NCBI GenBank assembly: GCA_027491165.1
Contig: JAIXWS010000037.1
Coordinates: forward strand, 1-41,969
Source: Sphingobacteriales bacterium
Lineage (GTDB): Bacteria > Bacteroidota > Bacteroidia > Chitinophagales > Chitinophagaceae
Direction: 5' to 3'
DNA: 41,969 bases
Shown here: piece by piece, positions 31,396 to 35,306 of the stretch
Layout: the number at the start of each line of letters is the position of its first letter
Position numbering within the stretch: the stretch's first letter is position 1
The notes under the pieces: model-generated
The model's input: only the letters and a program-made list of their open reading frames with translations
Database searches by the model: none
What the model was told of the DNA's origin: nothing
Made by a program: the position numbers and the translations under genes

Positions 31396-31752
31396 ATGAA
31401 AGAATTCAGTAAAGAACAATGCACCAAGTCATTACTGCCTATTCGAGATGCTTTGGATGTGATTAATGGCAAGTGGAAATTACCTATTATTGGTGCGCTA
31501 TTGCATGGTAGTAAAAGATTTAAAGACTTTCAAAAAGATATAGAGGGCATTACGCCCAAGATGTTATCACAAGAATTGAAAAGTTTAGAAATGAACGAAC
31601 TTGTGAAACGCACCGTTTATGACAGCTCGCCGGTAGTAGTAGAGTATAGCCTTACCGAATATGGCCTGACACTCAAAAAAGTGATGGAAGAATTAAATCA
31701 ATGGGGTACAGAGCATCGAAATAGAATTATGGGAAATAATAAAAACAAATAA
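31396..31752 (+). CDS. HxlR-family winged-helix transcriptional regulator
   Basis: The start is taken at ATG 31396, giving 118 residues; a TTG directly before it is in frame but unnecessary. It is a typical HxlR protein: a conserved cysteine near the N-terminus (EQC), DVINGKWKLPIIGALLHGSKRFKDFQ by parts (NGKWKL, RFKDFQ), then the recognition helix ITPKMLSQELKSLE and the wing with VVEYSLTEYG. Many HxlR proteins sense reactive electrophiles or quinones through the N-terminal cysteine (C10 here). It precedes the PNGase-like gene by 27 bases and may regulate that operon, although HxlR regulators more often control redox genes. Confidence 0.9.
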   Translation: MKEFSKEQCTKSLLPIRDALDVINGKWKLPIIGALLHGSKRFKDFQKDIEGITPKMLSQELKSLEMNELVKRTVYDSSPVVVEYSLTEYGLTLKKVMEELNQWGTEHRNRIMGNNKNK

Positions 31753-31779
31753 TAAGTAGAAATAATAAAAAAACTAGAA

Positions 31780-33726
31780 ATGAAAAAAAACACGACACAA
31801 ATTTTGTTGCTTTTGGCATTAACCCTAAGTTCTTTTATGAATGTCAAAGCTGCTCCTGGCGATACGACTTGGGTGCAAGCTCATGATGGTAAATGGTTAG
31901 ATTATTTTAATAATTTCGATACCACAGTGAATTTTCCTAATGGGACAACCAAATACCGTAAAATCATTATGGTATTCACGCTGGGTAAATATATCTGTCC
32001 AGGTGCCCCCAGGTATTGCTCTGATTGGGACTACACGGTACAAACCTATGCAATGAATAAATTGGGCGATACGGTAGAACTTGGTCGTTTAATTACGCCT
32101 TATGCCAATAGCGCAAGAATGCCCGCCTCTTGGAGCCAACCCTATTATTTTGATGTGACCGACTTTGCAACGGTATTGCGTGATTCGAATAAAATTAGAG
32201 TTCATTATTCGGGCTACAGTGGTGGTTTTACAGCCAATATTAAATTTGCCATGATAGAAGGAACACCTGAGCGTGATGTTTTGGGTGTAACAAAATTGTG
32301 GGCCGGTAGTTGGGCATTTGGTAATGCATCCAATCCAATTGACAATAAAGTGAGTGCCAAAACCCTTACAGCACCTGTTGGAACCAAAGAGGCTGTTTAT
32401 CGGCTTAACATCACGGGCCATGGTAGTGACGCTAACGGATGCTCTGAATTTTGTGAAAAATATTATCAAGTATTGAAAAATGGCACTTTATTAAAGCAAA
32501 AAAGTATTTGGAGAGATAATTGTGGATTTAATAATTTTTATCCTCAAAATGGTACTTGGATTTATAATAGAGGTAATTGGTGTCCTGGAGATCTTGTGCA
32601 TACCAATTTTCATCCTATTCCTTCGGTAAGCTCAGGCAGCAGTTTTGATTTGTCTATGGCCTTTGAGCCTTACATTTCTGATGGCAGTGGATCTTATACC
32701 ATTTTTGGTAATGTGGTTTTTTATGGTCCGATGAACAAAACAATAGATGCCTCACTCGATGAGATCATAGCGCCTACATTAAATGAAAATTATTTTAGGG
32801 AAAATGGACGTATCGGTTATACAACCGTGAAAATCAGAAATTCAGGTACTGATGTCATCAATAACATTGAATTCGAATATGGCGTTAGCGGTGAAACTTT
32901 GACCAAGGCAACTTGGACAGGCACATTAGCTTCATTAAGCGATACCGTAATTGATCTTCCTTTTTCAGAATCTTTATTAAAAGCTACGGGTTCCAATCTT
33001 CCCTATCAAGTTTCCATTCTAAAAGTAAATGGGGCTGCAGATGTTGATGTTACTAATAATAAATTAACATCCACCTTTACCCCAGTAATTGCTTTGCCTA
33101 GCAATGCATTCATCAATTTTTATACAAATAAATCCTTAAATGGAATGGGCATGAGCGAATCGTCATGGCGTATTATTGATGAAAAATCGGGACTTGTAGT
33201 AAAAAGTAGAATCAATAATACCCCAGAAACAGTTTATAGAGATACGCTCAACCTTCCTACTGGCGTTTATAAATTAGTAGTTTCGGATGAAGGTTGTGAC
33301 GGACTCAGTTGGTGGGCTAATCCTTCTGCGGGTGCTGGTTATATTCAAGTTAAACCTACTCCATTTACAAGTTATAATCTAAGAGGATATTTTGGTGGCG
33401 ATTTCGGTTGTGGTTTTACACAATATTTTAAAGTGGGTACACCAACTAACATTAAAAATGTAGCTGCCGCGGAAGATTTTGCTGTACAAGCCTATCCTAA
33501 CCCAGCAAATACTTTAGTCAATATTGTTATCGAAGGCAAACAAATCAATGCAGGCCAGTTATTAGTTATAGACAATATTGGAAGGGTAGTAATGGTTCAA
33601 GATATGCATGCGAACACTAGTGCTGTAAATACTAGTTCGCTTGCCAATGGAGTTTATACCATGAAGATTTTCCCTAATAAAAATGAATCTCAAAACATCC
33701 CCTACAAATTAGTGATTGTCAAATAA
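31780..33726 (+). CDS. PNGase F-like glycoamidase, secreted, with T9SS sorting domain
   Basis: The 648-residue protein has a signal peptide (cleavage after NVKA, about residue 24). Two domains then align by eye with peptide-N-glycosidase F of Elizabethkingia. CSDWDYTVQTY (80-90) and LGRLITPY match its N-terminal domain, and GCSEFCEKYY (220-229), FNNFYPQNGTW and NRGNWCPG match the C-terminal one. The catalytic D60 and E206 of PNGase F correspond to D84 and E223. The helper E118 appears replaced (S144). Residues about 320-440 form an Ig-like or adhesin-type module, and the last 80 are a T9SS tail (AYPNPANTLVNI). It may cleave N-glycans from glycoproteins outside the cell; activity is inferred. 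It is followed after 7 bases by a lipoprotein gene. Confidence 0.82.
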   Translation: MKKNTTQILLLLALTLSSFMNVKAAPGDTTWVQAHDGKWLDYFNNFDTTVNFPNGTTKYRKIIMVFTLGKYICPGAPRYCSDWDYTVQTYAMNKLGDTVELGRLITPYANSARMPASWSQPYYFDVTDFATVLRDSNKIRVHYSGYSGGFTANIKFAMIEGTPERDVLGVTKLWAGSWAFGNASNPIDNKVSAKTLTAPVGTKEAVYRLNITGHGSDANGCSEFCEKYYQVLKNGTLLKQKSIWRDNCGFNNFYPQNGTWIYNRGNWCPGDLVHTNFHPIPSVSSGSSFDLSMAFEPYISDGSGSYTIFGNVVFYGPMNKTIDASLDEIIAPTLNENYFRENGRIGYTTVKIRNSGTDVINNIEFEYGVSGETLTKATWTGTLASLSDTVIDLPFSESLLKATGSNLPYQVSILKVNGAADVDVTNNKLTSTFTPVIALPSNAFINFYTNKSLNGMGMSESSWRIIDEKSGLVVKSRINNTPETVYRDTLNLPTGVYKLVVSDEGCDGLSWWANPSAGAGYIQVKPTPFTSYNLRGYFGGDFGCGFTQYFKVGTPTNIKNVAAAEDFAVQAYPNPANTLVNIVIEGKQINAGQLLVIDNIGRVVMVQDMHANTSAVNTSSLANGVYTMKIFPNKNESQNIPYKLVIVK

Positions 33727-33733
33727 GTAATTT

Positions 33734-34435
33734 ATGAAAGCCCTATTTAAAATCACGACCATCATGTTCCTTACACATCTTCTTTTGGGATGCAAAAAGA
33801 AGGATGTTGAAAAAGTAATTGACAATTCAAATCGCCAGGAGATGGATGCTTTTTCTACAAAAAAGGGAAGTTGGACCTTATTAAGTTCAGATGATGGAAG
33901 TGTTTTTTATCGCTATGCCACTAGTGAAACTAGGGATATCAAGGGCTTAAAGATGGAGTATTTTTATAGAATCGATACCACATCTGTGATGAAGGAGAAA
34001 ATCCCCGAATATTATGGAAAATTTGATGGCAAATACTTATCGATGATTGACCTCGATGGCGCTTCCAAAGACTATATCAATTTTGTATTTTTCAAGGAAG
34101 GTTTTACTACAGGTATGTCTTGGTACAATGAAGAAAAGGAAGTTATTCAGGGCTGGAATTTAGTAATGGGTATTGATAGTAAAATTTTGAATGATAATGA
34201 AACTCTAATGGTGAATGGCAAAGTTTATGACAGTGTTGTTCACGTATTTAATAATCTTAAAGCTAGGTTAGCCATTATGCCTACTATGGTCGATTGTGGT
34301 GATTTAGAAATATGGTATAAAAAAGGTATTGGGATTATTAAAAACAAGGGGAATATAAAAGTTGCCCCTGCTGGAGTGCTATTGGTAGAGAAAGTATATA
34401 GCGACCAAATTCTAGATTATCACCTAGAGCCTTAA
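33734..34435 (+). CDS. lipoprotein of unknown function
   Basis: The 233-residue protein starts with a lipoprotein signal peptide (lipobox LLLGC, C20) followed by KKKD. Positively charged residues after the cysteine give no surface-export signal of the K-(D/E)2 type, so a periplasm-facing location is likely. The rest is beta-rich with many aromatic and charged residues (WTLLSSDDGSVFYRY; MEYFYRIDTT; WYKKGIGIIKNKG). The last motif resembles the end of barrel-like proteins where 'wYakGvGlVk' precedes the final strands. No family was recognised with confidence. It lies 7 bases after the PNGase-like gene, so the two probably act together or are at least co-expressed. A strong terminator follows. 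Confidence 0.7.
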   Translation: MKALFKITTIMFLTHLLLGCKKKDVEKVIDNSNRQEMDAFSTKKGSWTLLSSDDGSVFYRYATSETRDIKGLKMEYFYRIDTTSVMKEKIPEYYGKFDGKYLSMIDLDGASKDYINFVFFKEGFTTGMSWYNEEKEVIQGWNLVMGIDSKILNDNETLMVNGKVYDSVVHVFNNLKARLAIMPTMVDCGDLEIWYKKGIGIIKNKGNIKVAPAGVLLVEKVYSDQILDYHLEP

Positions 34436-34471: not shown

Positions 34472-34506
34472 AAAGGTGCTGCTCCATTAGAGCAGCACCT
34501 TTTTTT
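34472..34506 (+). terminator. terminator of the PNGase-like operon
   Basis: AGGTGCTGCTC (34474-34484) pairs with GAGCAGCACCT (34490-34500) around CATTA and is followed by six T. Confidence 0.88.
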
Positions 34507-34859: not shown

Positions 34860-35306
34860 ATGGCAAAAGAAATCACAGGCTATGTAAAGCTGCAATGTAA
34901 AGGCGGCCAAGCAAATCCAGCACCTCCAATCGGGCCAGCACTTGGTTCTAAAGGGGTAAACATTATGGAGTTCTGTAAGCAATTCAATGCAAGAACCCAA
35001 GACAAACCAGGTAAAGTACTTCCTGTTTTAATCACCGTTTATGCCGACAAATCATTTGATTTTGTTATCAAAACACCTCCAGCAGCAGTTCAATTAATGG
35101 AACTTTCTAAAGTTGCTAAAGGTTCAAAAGAGCCAAACCGCTTGAAAGTGGGTAAAGTTACATGGGCTCAAGTAGAAGAAATAGCCAAAGACAAAATGGC
35201 GGATCTTAACTGCTTCACAATGGAAAGCGCTATGAAAATGGTAGCGGGTACAGCACGTAGCATGGGTCTAACTGTTGAAGGCAACGCACCTTGGATGAAT
35301 AACTAA
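34860..35306 (+). CDS. rplK: 50S ribosomal protein L11
   Basis: The 148-residue protein has the N-terminal L11 signature ([28 protein letters not shown] by parts: [19 protein letters not shown]) and the C-terminal rRNA-binding domain with [19 protein letters not shown] and [13 protein letters not shown]11 forms the stalk base of the large subunit and takes part in RelA activation. Start and length are standard. It opens the rplK-rplA-rplJ-rplL operon under a full promoter. nusG and secE, which usually precede it in Bacteroidota, are not upstream here. Confidence 0.98.

What the first reader, a model, noticed from the sequence alone, without database searches (positions are those of the whole stretch)
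31396..34435. PNGase F-like T9SS enzyme in an operon with an HxlR regulator and an unknown lipoprotein
Residues aligned with PNGase F catalytic D60 and E206 are present (D84, E223) but the E118 position is S144, and the enzyme carries an extra module and a T9SS tail. The lipoprotein 7 bases downstream has no recognised family and could be its partner. This suggests an inducible secreted deglycosylation unit, possibly with a different substrate from PNGase F.
Basis: partly seen in the sequence, partly recalled or inferred. Interest (0 to 1): 0.52.

Follow-up and report, generated by a model that had tools for sequence, protein, structure and literature searches.

The report
Secreted PNGase F-type enzyme, genus-specific operon
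Three neighbouring genes in a Chitinophagaceae bacterium encode a regulator, a secreted enzyme of the known sugar-removing PNGase F family, and a small lipoprotein; the enzyme is of a known kind and the three-gene grouping was seen only within this bacterium's genus.

Summary
The enzyme belongs to the PNGase F family (PDB 1pnf E 7e-19, with the family profile 1e-36; PF09113 above cut-off) and carries a T9SS type A tail in a genome that has SprA. Seven active-site residues, including D84 and E223, are invariant in 33 of 33 homologues examined. S144 at the E118 position is the family norm (24 of 33), not an oddity. Published work ties that position to tolerance of core alpha-1,3-fucose, so activity on plant- or invertebrate-type N-glycans is a fair guess, untested.

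Linkage: within the genus, HxlR lies upstream in 5 of 6 genomes and the lipoprotein downstream in 5 of 5, although the outer flanks differ. Outside the genus, 0 of 30 loci have either, and 18 of those 30 sit beside der and/or a TPR gene and tilS. The lipoprotein belongs to a widespread unnamed family.

"Inducible" is weakened: a likely HxlR operator, defined from three relatives, is found upstream of this genome's distant yceI gene but not upstream of hxlR here.

Both structure predictions failed for the parts that matter, so the common cleft rests on homology.

The parts
31396..31752 (+). HxlR-family winged-helix regulator, the only one found in this genome at E <= 1e-3; N-terminal Cys9 present in all five genus copies read
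31780..33726 (+). PNGase F-family enzyme, 648 aa, signal peptide (by eye), catalytic domain about residues 47-313, Ig-like module, further beta module, T9SS tail
32029..32031 (+). codon of D84 (PNGase F D60), invariant in 33 of 33
32209..32211 (+). codon of S144 (PNGase F E118), Ser in 24 of 33
32446..32448 (+). codon of E223 (PNGase F E206), invariant in 33 of 33
32353..32637 (+). Pfam N-glycanase_C match (residues 192-286)
32743..33087 (+). Ig-like accessory module (about residues 322-436)
33493..33690 (+). T9SS type A C-terminal sorting domain match (residues 572-637)
33734..34435 (+). lipoprotein of an unnamed family widespread in Chitinophagaceae
34472..34502 (+). terminator-like hairpin after the lipoprotein gene (13 pairs, then T run)
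   Evidence: 2 such sites found in the region against 2.9 expected, so not significant by itself

Best explanation
This is a secreted peptide:N-glycosidase of the PNGase F family in a three-gene unit (regulator, enzyme, lipoprotein) specific to this Chitinophagaceae genus. Inferred working: the enzyme is exported by Sec and then by T9SS, which removes the C-terminal domain. The catalytic domain uses D84 and E223, with W83, Y85, H214, R264 and W267 around the first GlcNAc, to hydrolyse the Asn-GlcNAc amide bond of N-glycoproteins outside the cell. Ser instead of Glu at position 144 should leave room at C3 of the core GlcNAc, so core alpha-1,3-fucosylated N-glycans are probably accepted. With no GH92, GH20 or SusD-like_3 found in the genome, the gain is more likely better access to the protein than use of the sugar. 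HxlR probably began as partner of a divergent yceI gene, and the enzyme and lipoprotein genes sit behind it. Shown here: family, residue conservation, T9SS tail with SprA, genus-level linkage. Inferred: activity, glycan preference, physiological role, regulation. The lipoprotein's part is unknown; a surface or periplasmic accessory is a guess.
For: PDB sequence matches to PNGase F (E 7e-19; profile, 1e-36), zebrafish Ngly2 8.7e-22, PNGF-II 1.4e-13. W83, D84, Y85, H214, E223, R264 and W267 are each invariant in 33 of 33 aligned homologues. In Ngly2, Ala substitutions at the residues matching D60 and E206 abolish activity (PMC12753239, passages). T9SS tail and SprA at 2435 bits. GH92, GH20 and SusD-like_3 searches each empty. 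Genus linkage. Operator matrix.
Against: No activity data. The catalytic domain was not modelled with confidence (pLDDT under 50), so the common cleft rests on homology. The N-terminal PNGase F Pfam model did not report. No N-glycoprotein substrate is known for this organism. Only three glycan-use families were searched in the genome.
Confidence: 0.8

Rival explanations
1. Same fold and active site, but the natural substrate is not a eukaryotic N-glycoprotein: the enzyme trims a glycan-amide or glycosylamine on bacterial surface or matrix material, a household role in the family.
For: Present in 37 of 117 family genomes; in 18 of 30 loci outside the genus it lies beside der and/or a TPR gene and tilS, not in a glycan-use locus; the genome lacks GH92, GH20 and SusD-like_3.
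Against: The residues reported to contact the N-glycan core chitobiose in PNGase F and relatives are kept (PMC12381499, section 17). No bacterial substrate is known.
Confidence: 0.15
2. The lipoprotein is a dedicated partner of the enzyme, for example a surface anchor or a glycopeptide-binding accessory, and the two act as one unit.
For: Directly downstream in 5 of 5 genus genomes where the contig reaches, although outer flanks differ; the six close homologues (E <= 1e-20) are all in genomes with the enzyme (4 genera, P 0.008 by genus, cut-off chosen after the fact).
Against: 0 of 30 loci outside the genus have it beside the enzyme; all homologues together co-occur as chance would give (8 against 8.2); it diverges faster than the enzyme (35-73% against 60-69% identity to the window copy); one copy has an in-frame stop.
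Confidence: 0.3
3. HxlR is a passenger: it regulates yceI, and the enzyme and lipoprotein genes merely lie downstream of it, expressed from their own or a read-through promoter, so that the unit is not an inducible deglycosylation system.
For: A dyad between yceI and hxlR in three genus relatives; the own yceI has the best match of 153,032 positions scanned, the hxlR upstream region here has none; gaps of about 70-120 bases between hxlR and the enzyme in three relatives; hxlR absent beside the enzyme in G120.
Against: HxlR stays with the enzyme in 5 of 6 genus genomes even where yceI has gone (G000, G056), and the gap here is only 27 bases.
Confidence: 0.45

Closest known systems
PNGase F / EMTypeI (Elizabethkingia meningoseptica; 1pnf)
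   Same: catalytic domain by sequence; D60, E206, W59, R248, W251 kept
   Different: E118 is Ser, R61 is Tyr, W191 is His; Ig-like module and T9SS tail added
Zebrafish Ngly2 acid PNGase (9lwg)
   Same: second-best match; GHGSD-N-C-EFC motif shared; no Glu at the E118 position (Ala in the alignment)
   Different: thioredoxin-like and protease-associated domains, lysosomal; His at R61
PNGF-II (4r4x/4r4z) and Phocaeicola massiliensis group 2 PNGase (7zgn)
   Same: distant homologues without Glu at the E118 position
   Different: Gly there with a fucose pocket, N-terminal bowl-like domain; window enzyme has Ser and no such domain
PNGaseL and five others (PMC12381499)
   Same: His and Glu on the same loop, open site near C3 described there
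   Different: not aligned here; sequences not in hand

Membership tests
PNGase F family | sequence homology over the catalytic domain | tested here: met
PNGase F family | catalytic Asp and Glu (D60, E206) | tested here: met
   D84 and E223, 33 of 33 homologues
PNGase F family | two eight-stranded jelly-roll subdomains with a common cleft | tested here: inconclusive
   model pLDDT under 50 in that region
PNGase F family | release of N-glycans | not testable with these tools
   needs an assay
type I PNGase (PNGase F itself) | acidic residue at the E118 position | tested here: not met
   S144
type II PNGase (pocket for core alpha-1,3-fucose) | Gly at the E118 position | tested here: not met
   Ser, not Gly
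type II PNGase (pocket for core alpha-1,3-fucose) | N-terminal bowl-like domain | tested here: not met
   the PNGase F match starts at residue 47 of 648, soon after the signal peptide, so there is no room for it
T9SS cargo, type A | C-terminal sorting domain above cut-off, T9SS in genome | tested here: met
HxlR regulators | PF01638 domain | tested here: met
   96.2 bits, cut-off 20.8
polysaccharide utilisation locus | SusC/SusD pair and glycosidases beside the gene | tested here: not met
   no neighbour of that kind among the adjacent genes read; SusD-like_3 absent from the genome; SusC not searched

The most novel reading that the evidence does not exclude
A genus-specific, HxlR-linked unit in which a T9SS-secreted PNGase works with a dedicated lipoprotein of an unnamed family, wired to a redox- or electrophile-type regulator that also controls a yceI gene: deglycosylation of outside proteins tied to a stress regulon instead of a sugar-use locus.
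Probability: 0.15. Interest if true: 0.5.

Novelty: new member of a known kind. Interest (0 to 1): 0.27.

Why it matters
PNGases are working tools of glycobiology, and variants that take core alpha-1,3-fucosylated glycans are wanted. The Chitinophagaceae branch (37 of 117 genomes), with Ser at the specificity position, is a source of candidates. The der/tilS placement and the lack of three glycan-use families here raise the question of why such bacteria keep a secreted PNGase.

Tried and rejected
Structure prediction: the enzyme with 4 aligned sequences gave mean pLDDT 44.5; the lipoprotein with 2 gave 32.8. Neither is usable for superposition, and both jobs are spent. Fold searches with the enzyme model show only common Ig-like matches for residues 322-436; PNGase F is not listed, which says nothing given the poor model of that region.

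Lipoprotein family: Pfam on 15 members gave only chance-level single hits (best E 0.016; DUF3108-like E 0.13 in one). A PDB search with the profile found nothing (best 0.093); a single-sequence PDB search gave only chance-level hits, all to haemagglutinin chains (best 0.11).

First alignment of the homologues: 15 loci were read on the wrong strand, so those counts are discarded; one search replaces them.

A strict reading of S144 as a special change was rejected. 'No linkage in relatives', the first result from 33 loci (HxlR beside the enzyme in 2, lipoprotein in 3), was rejected as too coarse after the genus search.

Papers: no paper in the library holds both HxlR and YceI, both HxlR and PNGase, peptide-N-glycosidase with Chitinophagaceae and secretion system, or PNGase F with Chitinophaga and T9SS. 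This covers only that library.

Full report
What is there. Window 31396-34435 holds three + strand genes: an HxlR regulator, a 648-aa PNGase F-type protein and a 233-aa lipoprotein, with gaps of 27 and 7 bases. A terminator-like hairpin follows at 34472-34502 (the scan as a whole is not above chance), and rplK starts at 34860. Upstream, divergent, is a DUF4262 gene. The genome is a 2.12 Mb assembly in 145 contigs; close relatives in named records are Chitinophagaceae MAGs.

The enzyme. phmmer finds PNGase F (1pnf) over residues 47-309 at 7.3e-19, Ngly2 (9lwg) at 7.5e-10 and the Bacteroides fragilis enzyme 3ks7 at 1.5e-5. A profile of 29 homologues finds 3pms 4.3e-37, 1pnf 1.1e-36, Ngly2 8.7e-22, 3ks7 1.1e-20, PNGF-II 1.4e-13 and 7zgn 9.1e-12. 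I aligned 33 homologues (30 of the 43 places, plus 3; own copy included). W83, D84, Y85, H214, E223, R264 and W267 are each the same in 33 of 33. The E118 position is Ser 24, Thr 3, Ala 3, His 1, Gly 1, Glu 1. In the four genus relatives with the full gene these residues, S144 included, are also the same.

Meaning of S144. PMC9522356 (passages): E118 of PNGase F blocks the place of a core alpha-1,3-fucose; type II enzymes have Gly, Bacteroides group 1 Asp. [quoted passage not shown] most enzymes compared there have His where PNGase F has a Trp, as here (H214 at the W191 position). PMC12753239 (abstract and passages): Ngly2 keeps the Asp and Glu, and mutating either to Ala kills activity. In the alignment Ngly2 has Ala at the E118 position.

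Other parts of the enzyme. Residues about 322-436 are modelled with fair confidence as an Ig-like sandwich with many unrelated matches (best Z 9.4). The tail is a T9SS type A sorting domain, and SprA is in the genome at 2435 bits.

Linkage. Of the 33 loci, HxlR is beside the enzyme in 2 (window, L007) and the lipoprotein in 3 (also L064). The genus search changes the picture. In 6 of 6 genomes the enzyme gene is found (G119 only its start, at a contig end). HxlR is directly upstream in 5 of 6 (missing in G120, whose contig matches L064 in length and coordinates). The lipoprotein is directly downstream in 5 of 5 where the contig reaches. Flanks differ: rplK downstream in G000, G056 and G120, no rplK within the flank in G117 and G118; yceI upstream in G117, G118 and G119. 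So the set is held together within the genus. Outside it, 0 of 30 loci have either neighbour within the flank held (up to 1.5 kb for genome-search loci; some are cut by contig ends), and 18 of 30 lie beside der and/or a TPR gene and tilS. In the tree the three rplK-linked rows form one group (100/100).

The lipoprotein. No Pfam, NCBIfam or PDB relative. Homologues at E <= 0.001 occur in 26 of 117 family genomes. Eight genomes have both it and the enzyme, 8.2 expected. The six close homologues (E <= 1e-20) are all in genomes with the enzyme (4 genera; P 0.008 by genus, cut-off chosen after the fact), but outside the genus they are not adjacent to it. One copy (L064/G120) has an in-frame TGA after residue 199, which may be a sequencing error or decay.

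Regulation. Between yceI and hxlR in G117 and G118 lies TATACT-N10-AGTATA without mismatch, in G119 with one. The own genome has one HxlR and a yceI orthologue on another contig (C128) with a perfect 12-base inverted repeat upstream (1 of 300 mononucleotide shuffles reached it). A matrix from the three relatives puts that place first of 153,032 positions in the own sequences scanned (window and ten loci, not the whole genome), at 21.3 against 12.9 for the next. The region upstream of hxlR here has nothing like it (best -1.2), and L007 has a weaker site (11.0). So HxlR probably governs yceI, and whether it still governs this operon in this genome is open. That HxlR regulators with an N-terminal Cys are often redox sensors is recalled; RrpB was the nearest NCBIfam model, far below its cut-off.

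Verdict. An ordinary member of a known enzyme family in a real but genus-limited operon. The linkage and the specificity guess are testable; the lipoprotein's role is the only really open part.

Noticed in passing
L077 (G000 contig C128), upstream of the yceI ORF: Perfect 12-base inverted repeat resembling the yceI-hxlR intergenic site of three genus relatives: probable HxlR operator in trans.
   Followed up: yes
L008-L012, L014-L017, L019-L021, L024, L025, L027, L029, L030, L065: In the family the PNGase gene usually lies beside der and/or a TPR gene and tilS, a stable household place for a secreted enzyme.
   Followed up: partly
L041, 231-674 and 1435-2118: In G031 a lipoprotein homologue lies about 0.8 kb from rplK (divergent, one gene between), without the PNGase gene there; perhaps the lipoprotein was near rplK before the enzyme gene came.
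   Followed up: no
L064, 3419-4117: Lipoprotein gene with one in-frame TGA after residue 199, the frame then reading on to the usual C-terminus.
   Followed up: no
one search places in G032, G082, G101, G001, G088, G031: Open frames of about 1140-1180 aa match the enzyme at 30-32% from about residue 87-100 on: a second, larger PNGase-like type in the family, not read.
   Followed up: no
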